Of a stretch of DNA of 64,000 bases, positions 28,264-60,700 are shown one piece after another. Location of the stretch: assembly GCF_000003815.2 (NCBI RefSeq), contig NC_049995.1:11223248-11287247 (forward strand). Reading direction: 5' to 3'. The notes under the pieces were generated by a model. It was not told where the DNA came from, did no database searches, and was given only the letters and a program-made list of their open reading frames with translations. The DNA comes from Branchiostoma floridae (taxonomy: Eukaryota > Chordata > Leptocardii > Amphioxiformes > Branchiostomatidae). How positions within the stretch are numbered: position 1 is the first letter of the stretch; the number at the start of each line of letters is the position of its first letter. The position numbers and the translations under genes are program-made.

Positions 28264-29250
<987 letters not shown>

Positions 29251-41367: not shown

Positions 41368-41570
41368 TATTGCTATTATCAATTACGATAGAAAAGAATA
41401 CATCTTTGAGTTTCTTTTATCTGCTTCTTCATCTGTGTAAAATACTTGAGTTTTGTCAGGCACACAGAGTTTATACAAACTTGTTGTCAAAACTTGCACA
41501 TTGTGTTGTCAACTCTTGTTTATTTGTGCTTATCCATAGATATAATCGATTATGACATTATAAGCCAATA

Positions 41571-42235
41571 AATCATTCACGGACGTCACTACCACAGCTT
41601 TACAACGACTCTATCATTATCTTTATGACTTAACATCCTGTAGCATGCTACTTTATTGAATGAAATCGCGAAAATCATTCACAAATTCACCCAGCCGAGT
41701 ATGTTTCAGTCTATGAGTACTTTGTGAATGGCCAAACAATTAGGCCTATTCCAAAGGTTGCCCACTTAGATTAGTGCTTACATTGACATCCGACCTTGCA
41801 CTTCGCACATGGATCGCTAGATGTCACTGCTGCATGGTCTGTCTTTGCCCTCAGGGCGCTCAGGCAATCATATACCAGTACAAAGTATTCTATCAACGCG
41901 CTGTTGTAGTTGGTTGCATGTTGATAGACTTCATAACAACACCGTCATCACCTTCGAGTCAATTATTCTTGTATTTCAGACGAAATTATGAAACCGGTCA
42001 AAAATGCGACAGTCTAGAAATGTCGACATCACCAATAGTTTGTTATTTTTCATTGCGTCGTAAATATTGTCATGTAATCAATTCTGGTGTAAAAATTATC
42101 TGTCAATGAGTGCTGCGTCACCCTATAGAATTAAAAATCCAGCGACATTAGAGATATGGCCTAGCGTACAGTTATGTCTTCAATCTAGACGATAACTGTT
42201 CTATTAGAAAGCAAATTGATCGTCAACCTGATTAA
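41571..42235. other. Intergenic, nothing recognised
   Basis: No gene or repeat could be supported. Confidence 0.4.
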
Positions 42236-42692
42236 GGTCTCAGTCAGTTTTTCGCCTATGGGGATTTACATGGTTAAGGACCCCAAAGTGAGGCCGTTCG
42301 ACGACTCAAAACCTATAGCAAGGTGCAGATACAATTTACAAGGATTAAGTATGTTGAAGTTGAGGGTACAACCTACAAAATATCTGAAAATGAGCATAGA
42401 TTTGCCGGCTCGTTTTTCTATAAAAGACACTTTGATTTGACCCCCAGCGGAGGTCATGGAACTGCAGGAGACGAACAGGAAGTGCCGGTAACAGTATCAA
42501 GGCGTAGATCCACGCCGGCCGAAGAAGCAACGTAATCCAAGTTATACAGTATCAATACCGATGTATTCATCTACCATTCACCACAGATTCCACCTCGCTG
42601 TTGTACACGCAAGAATAATTACGGCCTTTGCAAGTACTGCGGGGCACTATTTTCAAACGAACTACTTTTGACAAATACTGTGTTATGAGACC
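42236..42692 (-). mobile_element. P element-like MITE, copy P3 (GGTCTCA ends)
   Basis: My label P, unrelated to Drosophila P. Inverted copy of 60776-61250. Ends GGTCTCAGTCAGT and the complement of GGTCTCATAACACAG, with TTAA immediately on both sides (42232-42235, 42693-42696). More diverged than P1 and P2 are from each other. No credible coding. Confidence 0.8.
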
Positions 42693-43197
42693 TTAAACCA
42701 ACTTGACCTTGGATTTCTTTTCATTCATACAATAAAACTAGTCAAGATATAAAACCGTACCAAGTTTTAGAACAGAAGTCCAAATGGTTCCTGAGATATG
42801 ACCAACTTTGCACTTCGGCGCCTAGCACAGGTGTCGGCCCTGTACAGGGACCATCTGAGGGGCCGCTAATTGGTCTCATTATCTCAAATAATTCAATATT
42901 CTGGTTGACTTTTACTTCTACAAGGAGCTTGCCAGACCACATTCTACCGTTCTGAGTGATTTGGGTTGGGGGGTAGTCTTTTTTAGGGCGTAAAAGGGGG
43001 GGGGGTCGAGCGGGCTTTAGACCGCACTAAGTCCTATACTTAAGCATAGGGAGCGGTCTTGGTGGCCGTTGCCATGGTAACGGCGGGTCTGACGGTAACA
43101 AAAGTGTTATAGTTCAAGTCAGCCGAGGTCAATTCCTAACATATCGGTGTAATTTAATGTGGTTGTCCGTCCCTGGGGAATTCACGCTGTGGATGAA
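42693..43197 (-). repeat. Segment Q, copy Q3
   Basis: Inverted copy of 61251-61759. Starts TTAAACCAACTTGACCTTGG and ends CACGCTGTGGATGAA. Includes a poly-G run and a palindromic RFX-type X-box, GTTGCCATGGTAAC. Here Q has a P element only at one end. Confidence 0.8.
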
Positions 43198-44284
43198 CAC
43201 CTGTTGAACAACCCGAAGCAGATAGCACAGCAGTGGCCTCTTGCGATATTGCTCCAAAGTGCAGCGTCATACTTTTCTATGGGTGATGTAGTACAGTTGC
43301 GCGGCGGCATTTGTCACGAACAACGTGCTTTTATCAATTACTAAAATAAACTCCCTTTCAAGTTTTAACTGTCTAGCAAAACATTACGTAGCTACATGAG
43401 TCTACTAGAAATCAGATCACGGCATCATTACTCTTCTTGACGCTTCGTTTCCTACCGTTAACGTATGGTTGTGCTGAGCGACACAATAAAGACCACACAG
43501 TTGCGCCCTCCAGCGATATATCTGTAACGAGCAACAATAGTACGTTTTGCGTTGACTTTACATATAGATCGGCAGAGGACGCTGCTACATGGTCTGAAAA
43601 ATATTGATTCAAAGAAGACAAGGGTGCTTTTCCTATTTCATTCATTTGTTCGTTCATTTAATGAGCCAATCATTCTTCCCTTGATTCGTTTGTTCGCTCA
43701 TTCATTAATTGATACATTCAAATACAATACAAAAATAGACACTTAGGTTTCCACTAAGTACAATTTATTACATTCCGTGAACAAGGCTGACGGGGTCGGC
43801 TAAAAATTTGGTGTTGGTTACGTAAAGTTAAGTTTTTCCACAATGTCATTTACCAAGTTGAACACTTCATACTACAATTTATTACATACTTCTAATCTTT
43901 CGAAATTGGATGTATTCACATTTGCTTTTTCTACAATAATTAGATTCAGTATAGCATACAATTTACACGAAACGACCATACAATACAATACATAGAGAAA
44001 ATGAGACAAGATTTTACAGATGTATACATTACTTTAAACATGTTATTTGTAATTTTGACCCCAGATCACTATGGGATTAGCGAGTTCCGGTTAAAATCCG
44101 AAGAATTGATTTTTTATTAATGTGTAATGATATGAAATACACAGATTTTCATCACGCAATAAAGTCATACAACAATGACAATACAATATACGATAATGTT
44201 GATGTGAACAAAATGATATGATATCCATGTAATTATTAATGTTCGAGTCTATGCTGTTCCCGGTTATCAGTAGTCCTGTTGAAA
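43198..44284. other. Intergenic, AT-rich, nothing recognised
   Basis: CATTCATT-like low-complexity runs at about 43640-43720 and an AT-rich tract to 44250. No gene seen. Confidence 0.4.
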
Positions 44285-45460
44285 GGCCGCGTGGCCAGGC
44301 CTGTTACAGGCTATCAGTATAAATTGTCCCACGGTCAGGCCTGTTCCAGTCTATCAGCTCCGTTCCAGATTTCCAGTTCCTTTTGAACAGCTGCACGTTC
44401 TGGGCCATGACAAGCTACAAGAACATGTAGCTTCTGGATATGGCCGGCAGTCAGGTCTGTTCCAGTCTATCAGTTTCCTCTGAATAGTCACACAATCAGG
44501 CCTGTTACAGGCATCAGTTCTCAATGATTTATCACACAGTCAAGCCTGTTACAGGCTATGAGGTCCGTCTGAATGATCACACAGCCAGGCCTGTTCCAGG
44601 CTATCAGTTCTCTCTGAATGACCACACAGCCAGGCCTGTTCCAGGCTATCAGTTCCATCTAATTGGTCACACAGTCAGGCCTGTTCCAGGCTATCAGTTC
44701 CCTCTGAATAGCCACACAGTCAGGCCTGTTCCAGGCTATCAGTTCCCTCTGAATGGCCACACAGTCAGGCCTGTTCCAGGCTATCAGTTCCCTCTGAATG
44801 GCCACACAGTCAGGCCTGTTCCAGGCTATCAGTTCCCTCTGAATGGCCACACAGTCAGGCATGTTCCAGGCTATCAGTTCCCTTTTAGTAGCCACACAGT
44901 CAGGTCTGTTCCAGGCTATCAGCTCCGTCTGAATAGGCACACAGCCAGGCCTGTTCCAGGCTATCAGTTCCCTCTGAATGGCCACACAGTCAGACCTGTT
45001 CCAGGCTATCAGTTCCTTCTGAATGGCCACACAGTCAGGCCTGTTCCAGGCTATCAGTTCCTTCTGAATGGCCACACAGTCAGGCCTGTTCCAGGCTATC
45101 AGTTCCTTCTGAATGGCCACACAGTCAGGCCTGTTCCAGGCTATCAGTTCCCTCTGAATGATCACACAGTCAGGCCTGTTCCAGGCTATCAGTTTCCTCT
45201 GAATGACCACACAGTCAGGCCTGTTCCAGGCTATCAGTTCCTTTTGAATGGCCACGTAGTCAGGTCTGTTCCAGGCTATCAGTTCCTTTTGAATGGCCAC
45301 GCAGTCAGGCCTGTTCCAGGCTATCAGTTCCTTCTGAATGGCCACACAGACAGGCCTGTTCCAGGCTATCATATCAGTTCCCTCTAAATGACCACACAGT
45401 CAGGCCTGTTCCAGGCTATCAGTTCCACACACTGTCATGTTCGTTCCAGGATGTCAATTC
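44285..45460. repeat. 45-bp minisatellite, more than 20 copies
   Basis: Unit GGCCACACAGTCAGGCCTG continuing TTCCAGGCTATCAGTTCC with exact 45-base spacing (for example 44671, 44716). Because 45 is divisible by 3, both strands are open: plus frame 44524-45387 repeats VRPVPGYQFPLNGHT about 19 times, and the minus frame 45372-44659 repeats a different 15-mer. No signal peptide, flanking domain or codon bias supports expression, so I call it noncoding with low certainty. Degenerate units extend to about 45700. Confidence 0.85.
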
Positions 45461-45699
45461 TTTAGTAATACCAACATGTTCAGGTTATTTCTGTTCATTA
45501 CGAATGTCCTAGAAGCAAAACGTGTTCCAGGCTATTTGATCATTTTGATTCACCACACAGTCAGGCTTGTTCAATGCCATTTCCGTTTACGTGTGTTACA
45601 TACTATATCGTTTATTTTGAATGGCCACGCTGTCAGTCCTGTTCAAGGCTATTTCAGATCATTGGCCTTACGATATATTCTGTGCCAGGCTATCAGCTT

Positions 45700-47279
45700 C
45701 TTTGGAATGACGTCTACAATAGTGCTTCTGAACATCTCTTGGTTAAATGTATCCGTAAAAGTTGTAAATCTCTATAACATATTCAAACGAATTGTTAATG
45801 TTCAAATATGCAATCTAAGCTTTAGTGAACTGCTAATATTCCAAGTTTACTCTCACCATATGAAGGTTCTGTGAAGTTTTCAAATAATATTGACAGTTTG
45901 TACATGGCACATTGCAGTACAAGTATATTTGTTCTGATGTATAAATGTACATTGATATTGCTACTACACTTGTAGACAAATCGGTACATAAACATGCTAC
46001 AGAAAAGAGGGTAAGAAAATCTGTTAGTGAACATATGAGGGACGACGTTACAGATTTACATTGATGTGTCTACAGAATCCCAGCATATTGATCAAGTCAA
46101 TCAACCAAAATGTGACGGAGTACTGTTATGTTACCAGCCTGGTTTTGAAGCTGTGTTTTTTATCATCAGAAGTGTTAGACCACGATTTTATGCATTAACT
46201 AACGTTACAGCGTTAAAGTTTTATGCATCTGTATTTCATACATTTTTATTCATTCCACTTGAATTCAAGTCGAGCCATTTTCTATAGAAAGAAAAGGCTG
46301 TGCATATAACAGATCATTTTTATGACTAGGGTAAAGACAATAATACATGTACTCTATACATTGATTGTCATGAATGTCCTTGTATTTTGCAAAAGAATCA
46401 CTAGAGGTCGTTGCTAGACCGCGGATTTGTCACGTCACTAGCTATATAGACTCGACCAGTACCATACAGCAGCGGCCTCTAGCGATCTACCTGAAAAGTG
46501 TCTGCACAAGATGGAGCTATCAGCACCAAGGTCAGTACCGCAAATTTACCTTCACGGAACCTTGCGATTTCATTTTATTTTATTTATCTAGGGACATTTG
46601 GTATTTGTTATCTTTCAAATAATTATGTCGTTTTCTGTACATTTAACGCCACTAATAAAAAAAAAAAAGTTGCCGCAGCATGGTCTATATCTGCAAGGTT
46701 CATATCATATATACAAAAAAAAGGAAATTGACAATGTTTTTGGATTGATTCGGCTGTTTTTGGATGCTTCATTTGGTGGATGCAAATTTTGACTGCTTCT
46801 GGGGAAATTTCATCTTCTTTTCCCCCAAATGTAATGTTATAGAGCGTATACGAATGAGCAAATAGTGGCTCAGGGAAATTTGGAGTCTCAATATCATTCA
46901 AAATTATTTCTGCTTTATAGTTTTGATATCAAGATATTACAATCGAACAATGACTTTGATAGCATCAAAAATCCATCTCTTATGCTTTTCCGGATTGTTT
47001 CTCCACTTCTTTTACGTACCATCACCGCTATCATACATGTATGTTACAACAGCTTCTACTTGTAAAATGATCCAAAAATAAGTGAAAATCCATTTTATTT
47101 CCCTTTTATGACTAAGTTCAAATTATTGCATTTTACCAAATATCAGAATTTATGGCTAGTTTCCTAGAGATTAAGACGTTCTTAGTTTGAAATTTACAAT
47201 ATATTGCGTCCATTGACTCATGCAAAAATCGTATTTTTCAAACATGCCATGCTGACTGAATTTGTCATTTTAGATGGAT
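45700..47279. other. Intergenic, nothing recognised
   Basis: AT-rich sequence with a poly-A run near 46658. No supported gene or repeat. Confidence 0.4.
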
Positions 47280-47475
47280 ATGTGCCAAGTGACTCAAATA
47301 TTGTAGTCTGAATCAAGTGACTCAATTCTAGTGGTCTGAGTCAAGTGACTGAAATTTGGTGGTCTGAGTAAAGTGACTCAAATCTGGTAGTATTTGTCAT
47401 ATGTCTAATTCTGGTAGTCTCAGTCAAATGACTTTTCAAGTAGTCGCAGTCAAATCATACAAATTTGGTAGTCAT
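47280..47475. repeat. 28-bp tandem repeat with TGAGTCA/TGACTCA motifs
   Basis: About seven diverged units of GTCTGAGTCAAGTGACTCAA plus ATTTGGTG. The better units carry both orientations of the AP-1 heptamer. It ends in a CATT microsatellite. Confidence 0.75.
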
Positions 47476-47945
47476 TCATTCATTCATTCGTTACTCTAGC
47501 TACCGCTATAATGCTACACAAATGTATTATAATTACTAATGCTAATACTACAAAAGTCACAACAACTATGTTGTAATTGCTACAGGAACAGCTATTAGTA
47601 TTACTACCAGTGTTACTACTAGAACTTAAGTTACATAGTACTACCAGTATTAAACCCACTTTCATCACGTTAGTAACGTGTCTACATTTTTTCGTGGCCA
47701 CCACTAAGCCTTTTTCGATTTTTTTTTCTATAATCATACAATTCCAAGGAATTGAACCATTGTGAGCGTAACGTGCACATGATATACACATGTTTATACA
47801 CAATTAGTATTAAAGTCGACCTTCAATAAATAATCTAGAACATGGGGTCTAGAACAACACCCATACATAGGTTCAGCTTGGAGCTTCTCGTCTCTTGGAC
47901 ATAGAATGGTCAAACGGGAGAATAAAGGGGGTACTGGGTATGAAT

Positions 47946-48110
47946 TTGTTTGTTTGTTTGTTTGTTTGTTTGTTTGCTTGCTTGCTTGCACCTTTATTTA
48001 TTCACGAAAGCTCAAATCGACCTGCAAGCCGCTTTTCATTGAGGTTATAATGGTAGAGGCAAGGGTCGGGCAAAGTATATTACAAGAGTTTACATCGTTT
48101 TAAGTCCATA
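47946..48110 (-). mobile_element. 3' end of a LINE with tetranucleotide tail
   Basis: GTTT and GCTT repeats followed by ACCTTTATTTATTCACG, which on the minus strand is an AATAAA-containing 3' end running into a simple-repeat tail, as in CR1/L2-type LINEs. No coding part can be read. The upstream extent is uncertain. Confidence 0.5.
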
Positions 48111-48463
48111 TGAGTCTTATAAGTCTACAAGTCTATATACACAATGTTTACATACATGGTACAACATACATAATAGGGAGCTGCTACATGAGTCCGTTCA
48201 TTTCAAGTGAGGAAACATCACTACAATATGATATGAATAAAAGTCCCCTCCCTGTACAAATATACCCTGCTACTGAAACAGTGAGGAAATGTATGTGCTA
48301 CTAGACACTACAGGGATGCCAACAATAACAACAATATGTGGCAGTTCTGACTATGCTGTGACTATAGACTCAGGACTGTTGTTTATTCACCAAGGACGCT
48401 CGTGATTATTCAGTGCTGTAATCAACAAGTCTAGACACATTCATACCACATCCTGCTTACGTG

Positions 48464-48567
48464 GCCTGGAGTCCAGCCTTGTTCGCTTTGTTCCGCTCCC
48501 GAAGGTCGCTACTCGCCAACAGCGACCTTTGGGAGCGGAAAAAAACGAAGAAGGCTGAACTGCAGGC
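48464..48567. repeat. Long hairpin (47-bp arms)
   Basis: Left arm from GCCTGGAGTCCAGCCTTG to GAAGGTCGCT pairs, with about 7 mismatches, with the right arm AGCGACCTTTGGGAGCGG to CTGCAGGC, around a 10-base loop (ACTCGCCAAC). It lies 10 bases before the 66-bp minisatellite. Could be a tiny MITE or a hairpin RNA; unknown. Confidence 0.8.
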
Positions 48568-48576
48568 TATGCTAGC

Positions 48577-49014
48577 GTGCGTACTCTAACATTTCGGTGC
48601 ATCTACAGACCACCAGCAAGCTTACAGCCTTACTACTCACCTGTGCGTACTCTAACATTTCGGTGCATCTACAGACCACCAGCAAGCTTACAGCCTTACT
48701 ACTCACCTGTGCGTACTCTAACATTTCGGTGCATCTACAGACCACCAGCAAGCTTACAGCCTTACTACTCACCTGTGCGTACTCTAACATTTCGGTGCAT
48801 CTACAGACCACCAGCAAGCTTACAGCCTTACTACTCACCTGTGCGTACTCTAACATTTCGGTGCATCTACAGACCACCAGCAAGCTTACAGCCTTACTAC
48901 TCACCTGTGCGTACTCTAACATTTCGGTGCATCTACAGACCACCAGCAAGCTTACAGCCTTACTACTCACCTGTGCGTACTCTAACATTTCGGTGCATCT
49001 ACAGACCACCAGCA
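48577..49014. repeat. 66-bp minisatellite, 6.6 identical copies
   Basis: GTGCGTACTCTAACATTTCG recurs at exactly 66-base steps from 48577 to 48973. All units appear identical, and the last is cut after ACCACCAGCAA. Two plus frames and one minus frame stay open because 66 is divisible by 3. No coding evidence. Confidence 0.93.
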
Positions 49015-49460
49015 ATTTGTATTAATTACGGAATATTATTGCAAAAAAATCTAGGTGAGTAAGATAAAGATATCATTTAGAGTAAATGTTTGTAAAAGGT
49101 CCATAGAAGTGTTCAGATTCGACAACTGATAGATGGAATTAAGTGTGAAGCACGGATTTGTTGAAGGCGCCCTAACTTTTTCAATACTTTTGATGACAGG
49201 ATATGAGGTAACATGATGACTTAGGGGATGGGTAAGTGACATAATGGTAATATTCTACAACGTTGGGGTGGTGGTCAAATGATCTTCGTACAACGAAAAG
49301 GTTCTAGTCAACATGTCGAGGAGTCGCGTTCCAAAGATGTTTTCATCTCGGGGGTTTTCTCTTTTAGTTTCTCTCAAATTTGAATGAAAGAACTCTTTTG
49401 GATTCTTTGCGCTTGCTGTTGTGTTAGCATCTCACTGAACCCAAACACAGACTTTTTTCT
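49015..49460 (-). other. 3' flank of the LRR receptor gene
   Basis: Presumed 3' UTR side of the minus-strand gene. No clear AATAAA was found on the minus strand here, so the 3' end is unknown. Confidence 0.35.
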
Positions 49461-52154
49461 TTATATACTATGACGGCGCCCTGTTAGAAATCTTACAAAC
49501 GCCTCAGACGCGACTTCATCAAACGAGTGCATAACCTGACTCCATGACCTGTGAGGAAGGACATCACCACATTTTTGGTATGTGCTTAAGACATCATCAG
49601 CTGATTTTGAGACGAGAACACTCCTGGTTGAGCCATACTCGCCAAACCTTCGGCTCCTTCCTCTACCGGGTACAAGTCTGTTTGCAGGCTCGTAAGCTGT
49701 ACTGCTTTGACTATGAGATCCAGTGCCTCCCCAAGCCACCCCTGCCGCCATCTTTCTGTCCTTTGCCTTTACCGTGGAGGTCATCCGCCAGGTGCCATAG
49801 GCCCCGCTTGCCAGAGGATTTTGCGTCTTGACCGAAAATCTTCCACTGATGACGTCTGTGTTCTTCTGTTGTTTCCCACCTCTATGTAGGTCCAACATGG
49901 ATCTAGACAGCTGGATTCCGTAGTTGGAATGTCCATTTCTTATCCTTCTTACTTCGGGAAGCGCTACCTCCGCTCCTGCTGCGTAGAAAGTAGTGACGTC
50001 CTCGTCTTCGTCTTGAGCATCAAGGTCAGACGGCTGCCACTCCCAGCGTTCAACGTTCTCTTCCTGGACGACGTTTTCATACCTGACGTTAAACGTTAGA
50101 GGCAGGGAGGACGGGCGCCAGTTCGCTTGCCGTGGGGTGTTCTGGTAGTTGTAGTACTCGTCTGGAATCTGCCAGTAGGAATTCTCGTCTGTTGGCAGCG
50201 AGGAGCGCCGATATTGATATCCAGGGTTGTTAAAGTTGAAGTAACCGTCGTCTGGAATTTCCCAATAGGCTGGACCATCAGCGGTTGCACCCCCGTCGTT
50301 GTCATGGTCACCAGTTGGTATCACCCAACGGCTGATAGAGATCACAGACCGGGCTGAATGATCGATTGTGGGTATCTCACCGGAGTTCTCGTGATTCTCC
50401 TCAGTGGTCTGGTCGTCATGACGACGGGGACGCCACTTCTTCACCAGGAAGATGAGAACTACTGCGCTCACAACAATTACCCCCGCGGAGACCGACAGAA
50501 TGATAGTTAATGGCACCTCACGTCGGCCTTGGTTGAGCAGAGGTCGTGTTGTTGTCGGCGTGTCCAGGCGAGTTGGCTTTACGTTGACATAAATTTCCGT
50601 GCTGTTCTTCATCGTCAGATTCACGTCTTTGTTGTCCCCGATATCAGCTGTCTTGTTGCCGACCGTTTTGTTACTCTTCCCTGGTCCATCGACGGCAGAA
50701 CCAGTGTTGTTGGTCCGAACTTGATCTCCGCTAGTCTGACATACGTTAGTGTCCGACTCTTCTGGCCTTGTAACGACGAAGGAAGACCTGAATGTCTCCT
50801 TTCCGCTAAAGAGAACGCACGTCACATTCTTCTGTATCATCTTCTCGCCGCCTGAGACGACCTTATTGATAGGTGAGGCGGGATTGACTATATACGAAAC
50901 CACAAGTGACGTCTTGTCGTTTTTCTTCTCAGTAAAGGCAGAAAGCTGTATGGTAGATTCTTTGTTCCAGGCGAGGTTTACACTGGCCGTTTCTGTGCCC
51001 AACCAAAACCGCTTGCACCAGAAAGTGACGGTTTTCTTGTGTCCCTTGTGGTTCCCTTCCATCACGGCCATGACGACGTACGAAGACCGAGAGGCCTTGC
51101 TTTCCGTTACTTCCTCCTTGCCGTAACTTTGTAGTCCACAGCCAAAGTCATAATTCACCTTGAGCTCCCCCCCTTGTGTCCACGTGTGATCGTAATGTAG
51201 CCACGTGTTCTCTGCGTGCTTATCACGTGTAAAGTGCGTGCAATTGCTAAGACCTGTAACCCTAACCTGTGCCCAAGACAAATCTGACATCACAATGGCT
51301 TCCCATTTAATTGTTTGGTGAAGTCGACCATGCACACCAAACAACTTATTTCCACCAAGACTGTAGTACGTAAAACGATTCTTCTGTAGCCAAATGATAT
51401 CCTTGGGCAGGCATAAGAAATCATTGTATCTCAAGTCCAACATCTTTAGTTTGACAAGGGGCACAAACACGTCCCGTGGGAGACTCTCTAGACGATTGGA
51501 GGCCAGGTTAAGTGTGATCAAATTCGTTAACCCCCGGAACCATTCAGGACTAGCAAACCGTAACAGGTTATGTTCTAGTATCAATCTTCCTAATGACGTA
51601 AGCCCTGCAAAGCTTTTGGGCTCAATGTCTAAGATATTATTGTGTGACAAAGACAGCATAAGCAGTTCATTCGGAGGTTTTAACTCTGTGAACCAATCTT
51701 TCTTGATGTGAGTCAAGTTGTTGTAATCTATGGCCAAAAGCTGCAACCTCAGAAACGCACCAAGACTCTCCGGTTCCAAGTCTGTGATACCTCCTTCAAT
51801 AAGGCTAAGGTATCTTACTCTAGTGATATTACAGGAACCAAGCGCTTGTACTGATAACACTCCAAATGAATGGCCCCTCACAGCTAACAAGGGACTACCT
51901 CTATCGTATGAAACACTGGCCACATGCAAGTCAGCTGAAGGTTCTGTTGGTTCTGTGCACAAGATACACGACCTGTGTAACGGAGAGTCCTTCACGTTTG
52001 CAGGGGGGTTGTATATGTAATGTAGTTGTCTATACCATGATAGATCATCGTAAATGCAGCTCTCAATGTCTGCTACTGTGCAGTTGGGAAAACAGCCTCG
52101 GATCAGGGCAATGCAAGCCGCCAAGGCAAGAACAATTATCACCCGAATCCCCAT
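49461..52154 (-). CDS. LRR single-pass transmembrane receptor, intronless, 897 residues
   Basis: Begins with a signal peptide (MGIRVIIVLALAACIALIRG, 1-20). A cysteine-bearing N-terminal region follows, then about six leucine-rich repeats (113-260; LxxLxLxxNxL pattern, e.g. LITLNLASNRLESL). The next ectodomain segment (290-465) is weakly Ig-like. After it comes a Thr/Asn-rich stalk with several N-x-S/T sites (482-520), one membrane helix (549-571) and a KKWRPRR stop-transfer. The 320-residue tail has repeated RWVIP (609), YWEIPDDGY (630) and YWQIPDEYY (660) motifs plus RYENVV (691), which look like tyrosine-phosphorylation docking sites. No TIR, kinase or death domain. Probably a cell-surface recognition or adhesion receptor of the large amphioxus LRR group. 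Ligand and signalling are unknown. The single open frame spans the whole protein. Confidence 0.88.
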   Translation of the reverse strand: MGIRVIIVLALAACIALIRGCFPNCTVADIESCIYDDLSWYRQLHYIYNPPANVKDSPLHRSCILCTEPTEPSADLHVASVSYDRGSPLLAVRGHSFGVLSVQALGSCNITRVRYLSLIEGGITDLEPESLGAFLRLQLLAIDYNNLTHIKKDWFTELKPPNELLMLSLSHNNILDIEPKSFAGLTSLGRLILEHNLLRFASPEWFRGLTNLITLNLASNRLESLPRDVFVPLVKLKMLDLRYNDFLCLPKDIIWLQKNRFTYYSLGGNKLFGVHGRLHQTIKWEAIVMSDLSWAQVRVTGLSNCTHFTRDKHAENTWLHYDHTWTQGGELKVNYDFGCGLQSYGKEEVTESKASRSSYVVMAVMEGNHKGHKKTVTFWCKRFWLGTETASVNLAWNKESTIQLSAFTEKKNDKTSLVVSYIVNPASPINKVVSGGEKMIQKNVTCVLFSGKETFRSSFVVTRPEESDTNVCQTSGDQVRTNNTGSAVDGPGKSNKTVGNKTADIGDNKDVNLTMKNSTEIYVNVKPTRLDTPTTTRPLLNQGRREVPLTIILSVSAGVIVVSAVVLIFLVKKWRPRRHDDQTTEENHENSGEIPTIDHSARSVISISRWVIPTGDHDNDGGATADGPAYWEIPDDGYFNFNNPGYQYRRSSLPTDENSYWQIPDEYYNYQNTPRQANWRPSSLPLTFNVRYENVVQEENVERWEWQPSDLDAQDEDEDVTTFYAAGAEVALPEVRRIRNGHSNYGIQLSRSMLDLHRGGKQQKNTDVISGRFSVKTQNPLASGAYGTWRMTSTVKAKDRKMAAGVAWGGTGSHSQSSTAYEPANRLVPGRGRSRRFGEYGSTRSVLVSKSADDVLSTYQKCGDVLPHRSWSQVMHSFDEVASEAFVRFLTGRRHSI

Positions 52155-53019
52155 TGATTATAGACAAGGAACTGGTGGTAATATGAAGCATAAAAATATA
52201 AGGCACTGTTCTCTAAACAAACTGACGTATCAGGTGGATGAAAAAAGATAAGAATTAGGCCAAATTAAGCTGCCAGAGGACCTAAGTCTTTTGCAGTCTA
52301 TCCATCTATCAGCTATCCGGCCGGACAGTTCACTCCTAGACCAATAGGCTAGGCTTTTGTTCCTAACTTGGCCAAAGTACCATTTTACTATTCGGCCATC
52401 CCGGAGTCTTGTAGACAAATATAAACATATAAATAAATGGGACACGCGATTTGGCCAACCAGGGTACCAGCGTAACCTGTAGTTACCCGTCTATAGTTTC
52501 TCTGCAAATCGCTAGATAACAAATTTTTGACATGGTTACTTTTGTAAGCTATCGTCGCTTCTTCTTAACCATCTACCACGTTTAGCCACAAACTTTCTAG
52601 CTCTCAACAGCTGTAGGTTTGCACTATCCATGAGTCACAGAAACAATGGAATCTACGCAATCTACTGTTCAATATCCAATAAAACACTACCACTAAGCAA
52701 AAATTGAATAAAATCTCTACAATACGTTATTATCAATTTAGTTGTAAAGGAAAGTTTTAGATAAGTGAAAGCTAGGAAACCTGGTCATCTTGCTCCATGG
52801 CATGAACTCTCGAACGATGACCTGTGCAGAAAGCAAAGTTACGTTGTCACCGATTTGTAGCAGACTGCTTCGGCACTCACTCCGTACACCGTTATATACA
52901 GCCGCGGCACGAGGTCCGGTCTCAAAGTAGTTGTAGTTGGAAAGGATATTGTCTGGAGTTTATACATTAGACCAGGAAAGACCAGCGTCCTCTACACCGG
53001 ATAAATCACCCTGTATCCC
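52155..53019 (-). other. Upstream region of the LRR receptor gene
   Basis: Promoter side of the minus-strand gene. No TATA box close to the start codon was convincing, and no coding sequence was seen. Confidence 0.35.
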
Positions 53020-53170
53020 CTTAAGGTAGTATTAAGTTGTCTGGGAGACGTCCAGCCTTTTGTTACTATTAACTTGCCTGAAAGACGTCCAGTCTTAAGG
53101 TACTGTTAATTTGTCTACGAGACGTCCAGCCTTAAGGTACTGTTAACTTGTCTGGAAGACGTCCAGTCAC
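53020..53170. repeat. 37-bp tandem repeat, about 4 copies
   Basis: GACGTCCAGYCTTAAGGTACTG units with GACGTCC at 53047, 53084, 53121 and 53158, an exact 37-base period. Confidence 0.88.
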
Positions 53171-53914
53171 TTCCCGTATTACCTTCCCCTGGGCCTTCTC
53201 TTCAACAGAAGAGGAACTGTATTTACACCAAAACATGTCACAGAGTGGCTGGGAGAGTATTTAGGACAGAAGTTTGATACATTAGGACAGAAGCTGTCCA
53301 TTCCCTGTAAATTGAGCTCTTTTATCTGAATGTAACGTTATATGACAAAAAAGGTAACGGTATTCCCAGAGAATTTTGAAGCCGTACTGGCAGTGGGTTG
53401 GTATCTACCTTGTCCGTATGTAGGGCACAGTATACAACTTATTCCATGCGAGGCCAATGTGGCAAACAAAAGCCTTATACTGTTCATCATAATTAGCCGT
53501 TCAAACAACGAGGCAATTAGGAAATTGACGTATAAGAAAATAACTGCATGTTTGTCAGATATTTGCATTATTATGTTTTTATTTTATTTTGCATCTCTTA
53601 AGGGACCATGGGATCAGTCTACGCTACTCTAAATTGCTACATCTCGTAGTAAATAACACTAGTTATAATGTACTAAGTATAATATTTGATTTTACATTGT
53701 GAAAATCTGTGTGGTTTAGGGGACAGCTAAATGGGAGCTGATTTAGAAATTTGTCTGTTTGCCTAGCCTCATTGACCTCGTTTTCGATCTATCATGGCCG
53801 CCGTGTGAGAAAGGTGCATTGGAAGGCAGAGACGAACCCTCTCATTCACTGCATTTTACCTCTAAAACAGAAGGCAGGTAATTATTCTTACCCCTGTGTG
53901 GTGTGAGAAAATTT
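53171..53914. other. Intergenic, nothing recognised
   Basis: The open frames here are short and without family resemblance. Confidence 0.4.
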
Positions 53915-54216
53915 GTGTGAAATGCATTTCCCAAGGAGCTAAGATCGGTAACGCCAGTTCACCTTTATCCGTTGAGTTACCTATATCTGTTGTTTTTAAA
54001 AACAAGGTATTTTGGGATATCAAGTCGACGGACGTTACTTTCAAATTGCAATATTTTCAGGATATTGCAGTTTAAAACTATCACCTGTCGACTTGATGTG
54101 CCTACGTACCCCGCATTTAAAAGCAACGGATTTAGGTTACCCAACGAATAAAGGTGAGTTAGTGTTAGCATGACAAGGTTTGAACCGGGGACATCGGAGT
54201 TCTGCGTCTAACGTTA
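53915..54216 (-). mobile_element. SINE relic split by a MITE
   Basis: ATTTCCCAAGGAGCTAAGATCGGTAA (53929-53954) and, after the MITE, GCATGACAAGGTTTGAACC (54168-54186) match, in the same order, the SINE at 9461-9977 (TTTCCCAAGGGCACAAGATC and GGATTTGAACC). The B box complement GTTTGAACC is still readable. Confidence 0.65.
53957..54158. mobile_element. GTTCACCTTTATCC MITE, copy 2 (inside the SINE)
   Basis: Ends GTTCACCTTTATCC and GAATAAAGGTGAG. The central inverted repeat ATCAAGTCGACGG...CTGTCGACTTGAT is well preserved. Same family as 24963-25180. Confidence 0.8.
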
Positions 54217-54388
54217 GTTCACCTTTATCCGCGGTTAACCTATATTCGTTTTTCGTTTTCAAAAACAGGGTATTTAGGAATCAAGTGCAATCTTCTTTGG
54301 AAACATGGAAATTTGAAAACACCGTCCTTCAACCTGATATCCCTACATACCCTGACGAATATAGGTTACCCCGCGAATAAAGGTGAAC
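54217..54388. mobile_element. GTTCACCTTTATCC MITE, copy 3
   Basis: Ends GTTCACCTTTATCCGCGG and CCGCGAATAAAGGTGAAC, only about 60 bp from copy 2. The core inverted repeat has decayed. Confidence 0.8.
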
Positions 54389-54429
54389 TTATGATAACAT
54401 GTTCTAATCACGACTTACGACTCTATATG

Positions 54430-55180
54430 TGACTAGATACCAGCAAAAAAAAACTACATCGAATCAAGGTCAAAGCCACAAGATCGGTCTTCCCGACAGT
54501 TGATCATGTTTTGAACTATAAAATGGTTTGAAGGAAAGTTCTCACTAATGTGTCTGCACTGCACATCGATCGGATATTGCCTTAGGGCACTGAGAAATTG
54601 TCTTTCCACCACCCTTCTCCATAACGGCCTTCCTTCCTTCATTATTTCGGTCAGAAAATGAATTACAAAATGTACTTACACCCTTCACAAGCCGGGCGGA
54701 AAATGTTATTTAGGACAGTAACTTTCCATATTTCACAATAGATGTGGAGTTATTTTACCTGGCTGAAAATATATGCAAATACCATCGACCGTAGTATGAT
54801 AAAATCTTAACATTGATCCACAAGGATCCAGACAACGTCGATTTTAGTTTGAATAGAAAAAATGACATGACGTTTTCAGTTTGTAGCTTTTACACTGAAG
54901 TATGGTACTGGCGTTTTGGCTAAGTTTGATTTATATGTGAATAAGTACCATGTACCAGCAAAAATTTACATCGAAACAGGGTCCAAAACTGCAAGAATTT
55001 GCCTTTGACGCAGTTGATCGTGTTTTGAGTCCACACAACGGCGTGTTGGGAAGTTCCCATTAATAAGTCTGTCTATACAGCATACCGGATAAATCATTCA
55101 ATTTAAAGATTGTCTGGGAGTCACCATTCGTTATTGCGGTTATCCGAGGACTTTTATTCGCCAGACAGGAAAGCTGTAGC
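54430..55180. repeat. Diverged direct duplication (about 515-bp offset)
   Basis: TACCAGCAAAAA..TACATCGAA, GTTGATCATGTTTTGA and following blocks at 54438-54560 recur at 54954-55080 (GTTGATCGTGTTTTGA). About 70 percent alike with indels. Function unknown. Confidence 0.6.
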
Positions 55181-55639
55181 TAATATGATATAACATTCCT
55201 TGACCTCTTTTGTGAATAGTCAACAAGCTGACGTGAGATGGGGTCTAGATAGGGGTCACCACAAAACATTATGTACTGTCCACCATTCTTGATGGTCATG
55301 ATTACCAGGGAGATTTACATATGTTGTATTTACATTGGCGTGATTTAGACAGTGTGTGACACATTTCAATTCATACTTCTAATCTTTTTTTACCAAACCA
55401 GCAAGGTTGCCGTTACAACATGCACATATGTATATGTACTTTCAGTACAAATATAGCAAAACCAGACAACAGGTCATGAAGGAAACCTGATTTGAGTCGC
55501 CAGCTTTCAAAGTATCAATTTGGCATTGGGATATCGATATTTCTGTGTAAATGTACAAAGGGAAATGTGTAATTATCTAACGTTACATTAAATATAGAGG
55601 TGTATCTTTTTTTTTGTATGTTTCTGCGTACCTATTTTC
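55181..55639. other. Intergenic, nothing recognised
   Basis: AT-rich, no gene or repeat supported. Confidence 0.4.
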
Positions 55640-56590
55640 GCAGCAATAACTAAGGAACCTCTGAATGGATTGCAATGATATGATGGCCTTTAATGGGCGT
55701 ATCTTTTTATGGTGCCGACCCTCCCGTGACCTGAACACGGCTCCCCACAACATCGCTTTCCTTTCATACGTATTGCCGGTATTGCGTCTTTTCACAGTCA
55801 GTTATCGGCTTGTTTTAACGAATGAATGAAGGCCTTTATTGCACATTTTTGCCCCACTGGGCTAAGTACAGGTCACACGGTAAGAATCACATATATGTAA
55901 CAATGGAAACAATCATACACATCTATATATGCAGATGTGCGTCTAATCTATTCTATGACATTCGACTTCCTCTCGCTTCTTGGTAATTGTGTAAATGTAG
56001 CCAGCTGTATGGTTGGTTAGACTTGGTTTATCAAAAGCTGTCAGGAATATAAATTTCTCTTTACTGTTCAAGTGTCTAAAGTGGGGATATTTACTAACAC
56101 ATAGTCAAATAAAATGTTCCTATCGCTATCATACAAAGGACAATCCATAGTAAAATGTACTTCATCTTCTACTTTCCCTAAACTACAAAATTGACATATT
56201 CTTTGCTCTAGAGGAGTGTGGTTATGTCTTCCTGATTCGATTCGTAATTTGTGGCAACTGATTCTTAGTTTTGTGATGGTAGATCTGTGTCGTACATTGG
56301 CAATCTTCAGATATTCTTCTTCTTTATAATATTGTTTTAATAGTCTGTATGTTCGTAGTTTGTTTTTTGCAGTCGCAACTCTCGCGTATGTCGAATTTTA
56401 GCTCGCATTTTTAGTCAATATGTAAACGATGTTTTGCAAATGTTTGTGCAATTATCCGGCATTGGTGACTTTTCATCGTGCAGATAAGCGAAGTCAATAA
56501 AAATGGAGTGAATGGGAGCCGGTTTGGAACTTAAGAATTTAGGACTCCGTGCAATTGACCGAAGTGTGCGGTTATCCGAGGTGATAATGA
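55640..56590. mobile_element. Second Tc1/pogo-like element copy, truncated and interrupted
   Basis: Matches the interior of 5342-6165: TTTATGGTGCCGACCC, GTTATCGGCTTGTTT, GTGCAATTATCCGGCATTGG and GCAGATAAGCGAAGTCA. It lacks both CAGTGGAAGCC termini and is split by a LINE tail at about 55821-56395. Confidence 0.75.
55821..56395 (-). mobile_element. LINE 3' end (C-terminal ORF2 and tail)
   Basis: On the minus strand it encodes LRISCHKLRIESGRHNHTPL, then RICQFCSLGKVEDEVHF and CPLYDSDRNILF. This is the classic cysteine/histidine tail after the reverse transcriptase of CR1/L2-like LINEs. It ends at an AATAAAGG-CATTCATT tail (55821-55840). Only the 3' 570 bases are present. Confidence 0.85.
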
Positions 56591-56817
56591 TAGGTGATAA
56601 AGATAAGAATGTCGTAAGCGCAACAACAAAGGAAATTTCAGTGGAAAAGAATTATAATATCAACTTAACTTTTGAATGTTTGCGAATCTTATCCCTCACT
56701 TTTCTTAAATGATTTGCATTTGATTTTGGTATGTAGGTAGTATAGTTGGAGACAGAAGCCTTCACACATCAATCTAGTATCAAGGACAATCAACAATATT
56801 GACGATGTTAAATCAGT

Positions 56818-57290
56818 TTAAGTGTGTACATTTGTTGGGTAATCAGGTAAAAGAGTTTGACCTCCATCTAGCATATACTTCCGGGTGGGCGCTTTGCCAT
56901 TTCCTGTCCGCAAGGTTACTGGTCGTCTTTGGTACCTCCTCAAGTCTTGAGCCACCTGTTGCACCTTGTTGACATAGTGGGCTTGCTTTGCGATCTTTAT
57001 GGAGTGGATGACTTTGTTTCTAAGTCTCTTCCAAACCTGATCGTTCTGCTGGTTGAAGGCCTTCTGGCGTTTCCGTATCAAACACTTTATAGCTGGTGTA
57101 ATCCACGCTTTGTCCGTCAAGTTCATCTTGACACATTTAGTGGGGAAGAAGTGATCTACGTGCCAAGTTAGGGTTTGGTAGAAAGCGTCCATCTTTCCCT
57201 GGGTATCCTGGGCAGTGTACACTTCTTGCCAACTGTGTTTAGTAATCCAAGTCCCAAAAGCTCTGATGTCGGAGTCCTTGAGAGAAATGT
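56818..57290 (-). pseudogene. LINE linker fragment (endonuclease to reverse transcriptase)
   Basis: The minus strand reads ISLKDSDIRAFGTWITKHSW, then FYQTLTWHVDHFFPTKCVKM, LTDKAWITPAIKCLIRKRQK and LRNKVIHSIKIAKQAHYVNK. This is typical of the region between endonuclease and reverse transcriptase in RTE/CR1-like elements. Both flanking domains are missing. Different family from the other LINE pieces here. Confidence 0.8.
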
Positions 57291-57369
57291 CTAAGAAAAG
57301 TGGGACTATCTGTAGTCAGCCCTGTGTAAACATAGTGTCATCTGATTCCCTGTACTGTCCAGCAGGACA

Positions 57370-57720
57370 TTCTTCAATAAAGCTACGTTGAAGAGAAGTT
57401 TTAGAAAAGAAGTTTTCTTAGATCTTATAGATAACACACATGTAGATTGTCTGACTCGAACTATCCTTTGTGTATGAAGAAAAGAGGTTTTCTTTGCCTA
57501 ATAGTAAATTGCAAACGCATCTGTTAGTCGGCTAACTCTAACTATCCTTTGTGTATGAAGAAAAGAAGTTTTCTTTGCCTAATTGACAACATACCCGTTA
57601 GTCTCTTGACTATGAAGAAAAGAAGTTTTCTTTGCCTAATAGATAACGCACCTGTTAGTCGCCTGACTCTAACTATCCTTTGTGTATGAAGTAAAGAAGT
57701 TTTGATTAAGTCGCAAACTG
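57370..57720. repeat. Tandem repeat of about 80-85 bp, 4 diverged copies
   Basis: ATCCTTTGTGTATGAAGAAAAGAAG and TTTTCTTTGCCTAATAG recur at about 57464, 57543, 57608 (shortened) and 57665. An isolated single piece is at about 58225. Confidence 0.8.
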
Positions 57721-58307
57721 TTATGTCACCATTCAATCGCTAAAATGTCATGATCTCAAAAATTTCACTCTTCCTCCCTCTTACCACAAAACTACGGTAA
57801 GTTCATACTAGTACTTTACTGTAATTACACTTTTATTTCTTGACTGCAACACGCACACAGCATGCTGGTGATTCACACATTAAGAAAGAAGGCGCTCAGG
57901 TTCTTTAAGAAACGGTAATTGTGTCTTTTTTTCTACAGATGCAACACGTTATGCGGCCCTAAACTTAAGTATTAGGTACCTACCGCAGACAATAACGTGG
58001 TACCGTTATGATTTTAACTTTTCCTGCTCATTTACACAAGGCAATGACAGTTTATGTACTTATATTTTATGATAAAGTTTCTACGTATGGTAGAATTGTC
58101 AAAAATGGTCGACGGTGAGTATTGTGTAGGAAACAAATTTATCAGACTTATTCGGCGTAATCCAAGTGTACAATCACACAGATTCTTTGCCTCGAAGATA
58201 ACGCAGGCGAATGTTGTCTGACTCTGACTCTTCTTTGTATGAAGAAAAGAAGTGTAAAGCATCATGGTACGGTATGCGGACGTGGTAGACAAACTTGGTA
58301 GACACAT

Positions 58308-58396
58308 ATTGGCTGCCACATCTTGTTTCTCATTGGCTAACGTTTCTGAATATTCATGAGTCAATGTATTTAAATTAGATGGGTCAGTCTATCTCA
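58308..58396 (+). promoter_or_regulatory. Histone-gene-like promoter: two inverted CCAAT boxes, TATA-like box, initiator
   Basis: ATTGGCTG at 58308-58315 and ATTGGCTA at 58332-58339 are inverted CCAAT boxes 24 bp apart. TATTTAAA at 58367-58374 is a TATA-like box. TCACACC with A at 58396, 29 bases downstream, fits an initiator. The predicted 5' UTR is therefore only about 27 bases. Paired CCAAT boxes and a TATA box close to a short leader are common in replication-dependent histone genes (established knowledge). The start site is inferred. Confidence 0.6.
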
Positions 58397-58422
58397 CACC
58401 ATTAGAATTCACCAGAATCGAC

Positions 58423-59223
58423 ATGGGTACTGCGATGATCAACAAGAAAGGCAAGTCCGGTGTAAGCAGCCTTTTTCCTCCAAGGAGGAAAGAAGACTCC
58501 TTGCATGATTACGTGCAAATCCTTGTCCAGCGGTCAAAGAATAACTTTTATAAGGGGATGCTCGATGACCAGCTGAGTTGTCTGCCGGACCACGAAAGGC
58601 CTCGGGTCCCGGTAACGGACGAAGTCTATCACCGATGCGTCACCAAAAGCGTGCGGGTCCGCTGCACCAAGCTGGTGTTTGCCTACGAGTCAACGGAGGA
58701 GTGGGGAACGGTTTTCCGAGACAACGTGCAGAAAAGAAAAGCTGAAGGTGGGTACGGTTCGCTCGAGGCGACCTACAAGGAAGCCGAGCGGCTGTGGAGG
58801 GAACACAGCCCGGCTTACCAGCGGTGCCGCTCCGTGGCCATGCCGGGTATACTTCCCGACGGTCTGAGAAACATCCGACGTACGAGGCGACCGGATGAAA
58901 CGGAAGGTGAATACAGGAGGCGTATTCGGCGAGATGTCACCAATTGCAAGGAGCAAGCCGTGCGAGACCAGCAACGCATCGAAGCATCCGCCATCTTGTG
59001 GCGGGAGGTACGGCCTGCCGTGCACGACCTATTAGAAAAGCTGTCTGAGGAAGGGATGGCTGTGAAGATACTCCAACAGGACGACGTTCGCCGTGAAATA
59101 GCCAGCCACATTGAGAACTATGAACCACCGCAGGACCCCATAGCAGCCACGATTGACCTCATCCTTCTGGAGGTTCAACGGCGTCTCTTCAACAACAACA
59201 ACAACAACGAGGATGCGAGCTGA
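58423..59223 (+). CDS. Unrecognised 266-residue protein with a histone-type mRNA 3' end
   Basis: Intronless frame beginning MGTAMINKKG and ending NNEDAS. I do not recognise a family. Visible features: a basic start; a mixed alpha/beta-like middle (YHRCVTKSVRVRCTKLVFAY, 69-88); a very basic charged segment, RRTRRPDETEGEYRRRIRR (152-170); long predicted helices to about 255; and a run of six asparagines (257-262) encoded by AAC repeats. Four to five cysteines, no signal peptide or membrane helix, so cytosol or nucleus is likely. It is GC-rich compared with its surroundings. Its promoter and 3' end are histone-like, implying S-phase-linked expression, yet no histone fold or Lys/Ala-rich H1-type tail is seen. 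An amphioxus lineage-specific or domesticated gene is possible. No function is claimed. Confidence 0.75.
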   Translation: MGTAMINKKGKSGVSSLFPPRRKEDSLHDYVQILVQRSKNNFYKGMLDDQLSCLPDHERPRVPVTDEVYHRCVTKSVRVRCTKLVFAYESTEEWGTVFRDNVQKRKAEGGYGSLEATYKEAERLWREHSPAYQRCRSVAMPGILPDGLRNIRRTRRPDETEGEYRRRIRRDVTNCKEQAVRDQQRIEASAILWREVRPAVHDLLEKLSEEGMAVKILQQDDVRREIASHIENYEPPQDPIAATIDLILLEVQRRLFNNNNNNEDAS

Positions 59224-59241
59224 GTAGTCTCCATGAAACCC

Positions 59242-59257
59242 GGCCCTTTTCAGGGCC
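59242..59257 (+). terminator. Histone 3' stem-loop (SLBP-type), GGCCCTTTTCAGGGCC
   Basis: A 6-bp stem GGCCCT/AGGGCC with the canonical four-base loop TTTC begins 18 bases after the stop codon. It is followed by ACCCA (59258-59262), the standard 3' flank where histone pre-mRNA is cleaved. About 13 bases on, the purine run AAAAAAGGGG (59270-59279) can serve as the histone downstream element that pairs with U7 snRNA. This matches the histone consensus GGYYCTTYTNAGRRCC-ACCCA. Confidence 0.88.
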
Positions 59258-59312
59258 ACCCAAATCATTAAAAAAGGGGCTGTATCTATCGCAACCACAC
59301 ACAAATTGACAC

Positions 59313-59318
59313 AATAAA
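59313..59318 (+). terminator. Poly(A) signal AATAAA downstream of the stem-loop
   Basis: AATAAA with TTGTTT following. Many histone genes keep such a cryptic backup signal, so this gene may make both stem-loop-ended and polyadenylated mRNA. Confidence 0.55.
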
Positions 59319-59323
59319 GTTGT

Positions 59324-59884
59324 TTACAATAATTTTTTGGTATGTATACCATATACATATATCTCCACTTTCAAATACAAAATAACACAACTTCGAGCTT
59401 CTTGAACCTTATATGACTTATACATTATAGATACATCTAATTACAATCATAATTGAATAACACAACTTTGGTGTCTTGGTTTGAACAAGGAGGTTGAAAC
59501 AGGGGATTTCAACCTCCTTGGTTTGAAGCGTTTGATTTTTTTATACATCAAGTACTACTCACTATGATCTACTGCAAAGGCATCAGCACTCATTACCAGT
59601 GCCAGGGTTCTCCCCAGAATTTTTTAGTATAGTGGAGGGGCTGGCAAAAATAACCCGCACCAACGCGCTGCGCTTTCATGAAAATGGGTTCATTTTGCAA
59701 TGACAGAGGGTGTCAAATACTACAAGTATAATATACTGTTGTGATTCCTTTGTTGTGAAGTGGCAAAACGACTATTGTTTTGATCATTGCTCATTCACAA
59801 GTTTTTGCAGACAATGCTGACTGGAAAAGTGATGCCACTTGGCACAAAAATCTGTGAATTGTCATTAATTCTAGCAAAACTAAC
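59324..59884. other. Intergenic after the orphan gene
   Basis: Contains an inverted repeat, AACAAGGAGGTTGAAA...TTTCAACCTCCTTGGTTT, at about 59484-59525. No gene. Confidence 0.5.
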
Positions 59885-60700
59885 AAAGACTAGAAAGGCC
59901 GACATTTGCTTGAGAGCAAATACAGCATATTTCAGCCATCTCCCTCCCCATGCAACAATAGGCTATTTCAAAATCACCCATTTGAAAAATCACTTTTACT
60001 AATGACGGTTTAACCCAAAAATGAGTCTTACAAAATTCCCCCGTTCAAGAATGGACTCCAGTGCACCCTATGTGAATTTGCACAATAGACCAGTCCAGAA
60101 ATACTCCCACTGAAACCTTGGCCTTTTGAATAAGAAACCAAATCCAAAATTGAATTTAGCAAAAAAGGTCCCAGTGCATAAAAAGGTATAATAGACCAGT
60201 CTAAAAACACTTCCACTAAAATTGAATTTTGAATCATCACCCGTTCAAAACTGAATTTGAAAAAATCCCCCTTCCGTGTGCAAAAAATGGACTCTTCCAT
60301 GTAAAGTAGAGCAGTCCAAAAATACATCCGCTAAAATAGGACTTTGACATAATCACTGAAGTCCAAAAAATGGATTTAAAAAAAAGCCCCCTCTATGCAA
60401 GAATGGACTCTTCCAGAACACCCATGTAAAATTGCAAATTAGACCAGTCCAAAAATAACCCTACTGAAAGACTTTGACAAACTAGAAGTCACCAAAGTCC
60501 AAAATATGAATTTTGAAAAATCCCCCCTCCGTGCGAGAATAGACTCTTCCAGCACACATTCTGTAAAATTGCAAAATAGACCTGTCCAAAAATGCATCCA
60601 CTGAAAGACTTCACCAGTCCAATGATGAATTTAAAAAAAAAACGAACCCCTCCGTGTAAGAATGGACTCTTCCAGATAATACCGGGCTCGCTGATTGGCT
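59885..60700. repeat. Diverged tandem array R, block 1 (about 125-bp units)
   Basis: Starts ACTAGAAAGGCCGACATTTG. Repeated AAATCCCCCCTCCGTGCAAGA and AATGGACTCTTCCAG motifs occur at about 60030, 60265, 60388, 60522 and 60648, with ATAGACCAGTCCAAAAATA between them. Ends in GCTGATTGGCTGCC near 60690. Confidence 0.8.

What the first reader, a model, noticed from the sequence alone, without database searches (positions are those of the whole stretch)
58308..59318. Non-histone orphan gene with a complete histone-type mRNA 3' end and histone-like promoter
Seen: intronless 266-codon frame, two inverted CCAAT boxes, TATTTAAA, very short predicted leader, then 18 bases after the stop a perfect GGCCCTTTTCAGGGCC stem-loop followed by ACCCA and a purine run. 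Known: this signal is bound by SLBP, is cleaved with U7 snRNP, and is almost confined to replication-dependent histone mRNAs in animals. The protein shows no histone fold. Inference: a new S-phase-regulated protein, possibly chromatin- or replication-linked, or a gene that captured a decayed histone gene's ends.
Basis: partly seen in the sequence, partly recalled or inferred. Interest (0 to 1): 0.92.

Follow-up and report, generated by a model that had tools for sequence, protein, structure and literature searches.

The report
Amphioxus non-histone genes with histone-type ends
A lancelet gene that makes a protein unlike any histone carries, just after its stop codon, the RNA hairpin and processing signals that are thought to belong almost only to histone genes, and diverged relatives of the gene in the same genome keep the same hairpin, so this lineage may have put a new protein family under histone-style control.

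Summary
An intronless 266-codon frame (58423-59223) is followed 18 bases later by a perfect histone 3' stem-loop (RF00032, 36.4 bits, gathering 34, E 6.3e-7), ACCCA, and a purine-rich block that can pair with a recalled vertebrate-type U7 5' end. The protein has no detectable histone similarity; its relatives are from Branchiostoma plus one JGI contig. New: of 13 matches in the window's genome, six places (this one included) keep the C-terminus. Five of six have an RF00032 match right after it (29.2-36.4 bits, two above gathering); the sixth has the hairpin with one stem mismatch. Against the copy on C6, 62 of 126 residues and 13 of 30 fourfold sites agree, but 22 of 22 in the stem-loop block. 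No core histone was found in the window or 160 kb sampled nearby. Best reading: a Branchiostoma-specific, non-histone gene family whose mRNAs are cut by the SLBP/U7 machinery, probably with a poly(A) fallback. Transcription, S-phase timing and protein function are untested; 11 of the 13 matches are partial.

The parts
58308..58312 (-). inverted CCAAT (ATTGG) no. 1; lost in the second copy L002
58332..58336 (-). inverted CCAAT (ATTGG) no. 2; kept in L002
58367..58374 (+). TATA-like TATTTAAA; kept in L002; start of transcription inferred about 58396
   Evidence: the start site is inference
58423..59223 (+). intronless coding frame, 266 aa, Branchiostoma-specific family, predicted mostly helical, no known domain
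59242..59257 (+). histone 3' UTR stem-loop, 6-bp stem, UUUC loop (presumed SLBP site)
59258..59262 (+). ACCCA, presumed cleavage site 5 nt after the stem (L002 has it too; L004 and L005 ACCGA, L009 CCCCA, L015 TACTA)
   Evidence: ACCCA as the mammalian major site: PMC6303110 passage
59270..59290 (+). histone downstream element-like block AAAAAAGGGGCTGTATCTATC; GGGCTRTATCTATC shared by window, L002, L004 and L015 (4 of 6; L005 has two extra bases, L009 lacks it)
59313..59318 (+). AATAAA, possible fallback poly(A) signal, 55 nt after the stem; also 53 nt after it in L002, 48 in L004, 42 in L015, only at 100 in L005, none within 200 nt in L009

Best explanation
A Branchiostoma-restricted family of intronless non-histone genes whose mRNAs get their 3' end from the histone pre-mRNA machinery: SLBP binds the stem-loop, U7 snRNP pairs with the purine-rich block, the cleavage factor cuts after ACCCA, and the mRNA ends in the stem-loop without a poly(A) tail; AATAAA 55 nt further on gives a polyadenylated form when that step fails, as in H2A.X. 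Expression would then follow S phase, or the maternal/early-cleavage histone pool. Shown: the signals, their order and spacing, the stem-loop behind diverged paralogues, its identity against near-saturated fourfold sites, and the conserved non-histone protein. Inferred: binding, cleavage, timing. The protein's function is a guess: a helical, overall basic protein (pI 8.7, 12% arginine, but with an acidic last third) needed in proportion to DNA synthesis.
For: RF00032 at 36.4 bits. In the own genome 13 protein matches (a lower bound), of which 6 places, this one included, keep the C-terminus; 5 of 6 have RF00032 directly after it: self 36.4, L002 35.5, L004 33.2, L005 33.2, L009 29.2 bits; the sixth (L015) reads GGCCCTTTTCAGGACC plus AAAAAGGGCTATATCTATC. 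Window versus L004: 62 of 126 aa, fourfold sites 13 of 30, stem-loop block 22 of 22, neighbouring UTR 11 of 22. Pairing with a recalled vertebrate-type U7 5' end -15.3 kcal/mol; 2 of 1000 dinucleotide shuffles and 13 of 4962 random window 28-mers do as well. Relatives in other Branchiostoma species are 49-63% identical, in old subfamilies.
Against: No transcript data. No DNA of other species could be read. Four of the six places with the C-terminus are 5'-truncated fragments; window and L002 belong to one inverted duplication and L004 and L005 to another recent one, so independent lineages are about four, not six. Three of the five Rfam matches lie below the gathering score. L015 agrees with the window in 17 of 22 of the stem-loop block and has a stem mismatch. 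The 26 nt after the block agree 18 of 26 with L004 and 17 of 26 with L009, which lacks the shared motif, so the downstream block is not shown to be kept by count. Folding energy alone is unremarkable. A looser U7 test was weaker, 29 of 1989. The U7 sequence was recalled, and amphioxus U7, SLBP and histone genes could not be compared (tool unanswered).
Confidence: 0.7

Rival explanations
1. The stem-loop is a relic: the family's founder captured the 3' end of a histone gene (or arose on a decayed one) and the mRNAs are now made mainly by ordinary polyadenylation at the AATAAA.
For: AATAAA 42-55 nt after the stem in window, L002, L004 and L015, 4 of 6 places; hairpin decayed in L015.
Against: Stem-loop block 22 of 22 against 13 of 30 fourfold sites between window and L004 argues for upkeep; no core histone relic by tblastn in the window or in 160 kb sampled nearby. 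Poly(A) signals also occur downstream of histone hairpins in ordinary histone genes (PMC1924863, passage).
Confidence: 0.17
2. The family is largely a spreading repeat: fragments with the 3' end are carried by a repetitive element and the hairpin spreads with it; this copy and L002 are hardly expressed.
For: L004, L005 and L009 are truncated and their stretches hold 26, 35 and 20 copies of TCAGCACTGG, part of palindromic arrays; 11 of 13 matches are partial.
Against: Two intact copies here, and full-length proteins annotated in other Branchiostoma species at 55-59% identity (Hypp4550, LOC109483342, LOC109463953) with blocks invariant in the family alignment; no TCAGCACTGG at the window gene (57001-60600), in L002 or in L015. 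The match count is a lower bound, so spread is not measured.
Confidence: 0.1
3. The hairpin is a chance look-alike.
For: A strict hairpin pattern also occurs once elsewhere in the window, 33768-33783 (-), without Rfam support; folding energy alone is unremarkable.
Against: E 6.3e-7, position on the right strand 18 nt after the stop, repeated behind diverged paralogues; in 160 kb of neighbouring sequence the strict pattern occurs once, at the second copy of this gene.
Confidence: 0.01

Closest known systems
Metazoan replication-dependent histone genes (3' stem-loop, Rfam RF00032, with HDE)
   Same: intronless, TATA and CCAAT, short 3' UTR, stem-loop, ACCCA, U7-pairable downstream block
   Different: protein is not a histone and is longer; no core histone found nearby; stem preceded by CCC instead of the consensus AAA, and GGCCCU instead of the consensus GGCUCU (Rfam consensus line)
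H2A.X-type bimorphic mRNA (stem-loop plus downstream poly(A) signal)
   Same: stem-loop followed by a usable-looking AATAAA
   Different: not a histone variant; use of either end is untested (H2AFX as bimorphic: PMC3188798 passage; PMC7807067, start of abstract in the listing)
Branchiostoma uncharacterised proteins C3ZQN4, Hypp4550/4549/3065, LOC109483342, LOC109463953, LOC144887459, Bbelb_242950
   Same: same protein family, 49-94% identity
   Different: the DNA after their frames could not be read here

Membership tests
genes with a histone-type (RF00032/SLBP/U7) mRNA 3' end | 6-bp stem, 4-nt loop stem-loop scoring above Rfam's gathering score just after the stop | tested here: met
   36.4 against 34 bits, 18 nt after the stop; L002 35.5
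genes with a histone-type (RF00032/SLBP/U7) mRNA 3' end | cleavage-site sequence ACCCA 5 nt after the stem | tested here: met
   59258-59262; ACCCA as major site from PMC6303110 passages; the copies other than L002 differ by one or more bases there
genes with a histone-type (RF00032/SLBP/U7) mRNA 3' end | downstream element that pairs with the species' U7 snRNA | tested here: inconclusive
   strong pairing with a recalled vertebrate-type U7 5' end; the genome's own U7 could not be searched
genes with a histone-type (RF00032/SLBP/U7) mRNA 3' end | stem-loop kept across diverged relatives | tested here: met
   5 of 6 places with the C-terminus have an RF00032 match (two above gathering), the sixth has one stem mismatch; within one genome only
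genes with a histone-type (RF00032/SLBP/U7) mRNA 3' end | non-polyadenylated mRNA ending after ACCCA, SLBP bound, S-phase regulated | not testable with these tools
   no RNA data
replication-dependent histones (protein) | recognisable core or linker histone sequence | tested here: not met
   no histone family among Pfam matches up to E 5 or for the 7 members of A2 up to E 1; hhalign to recalled H2A, H2B, H3, H4 at 0.1-0.2% probability, no better than one shuffled control each; H1 only through Pfam
replication-dependent histones (protein) | histone fold in three dimensions | tested here: inconclusive
   model mean pLDDT 68, pTM 0.42, all-helical; no clear PDB match

The most novel reading that the evidence does not exclude
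Cephalochordates have a family of non-histone proteins entrained to the histone mRNA cycle: the first animal non-histone regulon of SLBP and U7 snRNP, old enough to predate the family's subfamilies and kept by selection, perhaps supplying a DNA- or chromatin-linked protein in step with replication.
Probability: 0.5. Interest if true: 0.9.

Novelty: new variant of a known kind. Interest (0 to 1): 0.75.

Why it matters
[quoted passage not shown] Non-histone poly(A)-minus mRNAs as such have been reported (PMC3188798, passages); the histone signal on them is the point here. A conserved non-histone family with the full signal would show that the system can be recruited, would give a natural test of which elements suffice for cell-cycle coupling, and would point to proteins needed in proportion to DNA synthesis. 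It would also mean that poly(A)-selected RNA-seq may miss such genes.

Full report
What is there. The listed relatives of the two window proteins that I searched are from Branchiostoma or, in one case, an unnamed JGI contig, and the nearest relative of the studied protein is C3ZQN4 of B. floridae at 94%; B. floridae is my inference. The frame 58423-59223 (+) has 266 codons and no intron, GC3 of 65% against 37-38% GC in the flanks. Eighteen bases after the stop stands GGCCCTTTTCAGGGCC, then ACCCA, AAATCATT, AAAAAAGGGGCTGTATCTATC and, 55 nt beyond the stem, AATAAA. Rfam calls RF00032 at 36.4 bits (gathering 34), E 6.3e-7, and nothing else in the window reaches a gathering score. The hairpin folds as drawn, but by energy alone it is not special: 5 of 200 shuffles of 59221-59262 and 44 of 200 of 59237-59283 fold as well.

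The downstream block. Pairing of the 28 nt after the presumed cleavage site with the first 18 nt of a human-like U7 RNA (recalled) gives -15.3 kcal/mol; 2 of 1000 dinucleotide shuffles and 13 of 4962 random window 28-mers do as well. A first, looser test on 43 nt gave 29 of 1989. Both used a vertebrate sequence, because the genome's own U7 could not be searched. That U7 pairs through CUCUUU with an AAAGAG core is from PMC7026596 (passages).

The protein. No Pfam family above its cut-off, no PHROG, no PDB sequence at E up to 1 (the profile's one match up to E 10, a MarR-type regulator, is at E 0.21). hhalign to recalled H2A, H2B, H3 and H4 is at the level of one shuffled control each. It is basic overall (pI 8.7, 12% arginine) with an acidic last third. 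Twelve relatives at E up to 0.1: C3ZQN4, Hypp4550, Hypp4549, Hypp3065, Hypp712, LOC109483342, LOC109463953, Bbelb_242950, Bbelb_173680, Bbelb_210100, LOC144887459 and JGI protein P0002; several are partial or chimeric models. Only the 7993 candidates sharing most words were scored, so more distant relatives may have been missed. The tree of ten rows (midpoint-rooted; the three shortest relatives left out) puts the window with C3ZQN4 (100/99) and separates its side from LOC109463953/Hypp3065 and LOC109483342/Hypp4550/Hypp4549 (100/100), and B. belcheri and B. lanceolatum stand in both of these two groups: duplications older than those species. A core (WG..FR....K.K.EGG.G.LEA..K.AERLWRE.SP.Y) is invariant in the 7 rows of alignment A2 and less so with fragments added. 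The better model is all-helical with pLDDT 68 and matches no known fold clearly.

Paralogues in the genome: the decisive result. The protein has 13 matches, a lower bound. Six places keep the C-terminus: self; L002 (C17:11595502-11596296, minus strand, 99%, no stop inside); L004 (C6) and L005 (C1), 5'-truncated copies of the P0002 type (98% and 88% to P0002, about 45% to this protein), each with one TGA inside the match, by eye their own earlier stop; L009 (C19), a short end of the LOC144887459 type (20 of 20 residues); and L007/L015 (C221), a fragment nearest LOC109463953 (65%). Rfam finds RF00032 directly after the coding end in five of six: 36.4, 35.5, 33.2, 33.2 and 29.2 bits; two of these pass the gathering score. 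L015 was not called up to E 5, but reads GGCCCTTTTCAGGACC, one stem mismatch, followed by AAAAAGGGCTATATCTATC. The other seven matches end before the C-terminus; stretches around all seven were scanned and have no RF00032 match (L003, L006, L008; L010-L014, L016, L019).

Is it kept by selection? Window versus L004: 62 of 126 residues identical, shared fourfold sites 13 of 30 identical, the 22-nt block CCC-hairpin-ACC 22 of 22, the UTR before it 11 of 22, the 26 nt after it 18 of 26. The block agrees 22 of 22 in L002 and L005, 21 of 22 in L009 and 17 of 22 in L015. The 26 nt after the block agree 17 of 26 with L009 too, which lacks the shared GGGCTRTATCTATC motif, so by count the downstream block is not shown to be kept; the motif is shared by window, L002, L004 and L015 (4 of 6). 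The flanks diverge, so a recent conversion of the whole end is unlikely, though a very short conversion cannot be excluded. I chose the segments after seeing the alignment. Window and L002 belong to one inverted duplication that reaches from about window 41275 to 59390, matching pieces of 500 bases or more at mostly 93-99% (88-90% within the 44.5-45.4 kb minisatellite; it could be a second haplotype in the assembly), and L004/L005 to another; there are thus about four lineages, not six.

Mechanism. Known for histones: SLBP binds the hairpin, U7 snRNP pairs with the downstream element and the cut falls between the two (PMC7026596, passages), with the major cleavage 5 nt after the stem at ACCCA (PMC6303110, passages). 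All those sites are here in order; ACCCA itself is kept in L002 but varies in the other copies. AATAAA follows the stem by 42-55 nt in window, L002, L004 and L015 (4 of 6), which suggests a two-ended gene like H2AFX, a known bimorphic transcript (PMC3188798, passages), although poly(A) signals also lie downstream of ordinary histone hairpins (PMC1924863, passage). Inferred: that the same machinery acts here, hence replication coupling. C3ZQN4's row lists uniref and eukprot but neither ncbi nor nr as sources, which would fit a gene missed by poly(A) RNA-seq, but that is weak.

Capture or ancient trait? No core histone by tblastn in the window (best E 2.4) nor at E up to 1 in 160 kb sampled around the two C17 copies, where the strict hairpin pattern occurs once, at L002's gene. 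Because the hairpin stands behind diverged subtypes, with a degraded trace in the LOC109463953 type, it was most likely present in the ancestor of the family. How the ancestor got it is open.

Limits. No RNA data, no DNA of other species, no amphioxus histone, U7 or SLBP comparison (tool unanswered, and later), and 11 of the 13 matches are partial. The promoter resemblance is modest: one of two CCAAT boxes is not kept in L002.

Verdict. The signal is of a known kind; its host is new as far as my searches of the held papers reach (listings and passages only).

Noticed in passing
window 33768-33783 (-): Hairpin GGTTCTTTTAAGAGCC resembling the histone stem-loop, by eye part of a larger palindrome, not followed by ACCCA and without an Rfam match up to E 10.
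   Followed up: partly
window 59480-59530: Strong inverted repeat just downstream of the gene (59478-59535 folds at -25.4 kcal/mol, z -4.9, 0 of 200 shuffles as good).
   Followed up: no
window 41275-59390 and C17 about 11.595-11.627 Mb: Inverted duplication (or misplaced haplotype) of about 18 kb, pieces mostly 93-99% identical, ending just past this gene.
   Followed up: partly
L004 900-1100, L005 1200-1500, L009 3020-3200 (-): Arrays of TCAGCACTGGAAATCCAGTGCTGA-type palindromes at or near the truncation points of three gene fragments (20-35 copies of TCAGCACTGG per stretch); perhaps a repeat that captures gene ends.
   Followed up: partly
window 57416-57703 and 58183-58253: Diverged repeats of about 56 nt upstream of the gene, the last one about 55 nt before the first CCAAT box.
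   Followed up: no
window 44524-45387: Coding-length minisatellite of 45-bp units (HTVRPVPGYQFPLNG repeated), open on both strands.
   Followed up: no
window 49461-52154 (-): 897-aa leucine-rich-repeat-like frame whose three listed relatives, all Branchiostoma, are only 37-54% identical.
   Followed up: partly
window 3967-5151, 19645-20715, 28264-28950: Three zinc-finger (C2H2-like, recognised by eye) frames in one window.
   Followed up: no
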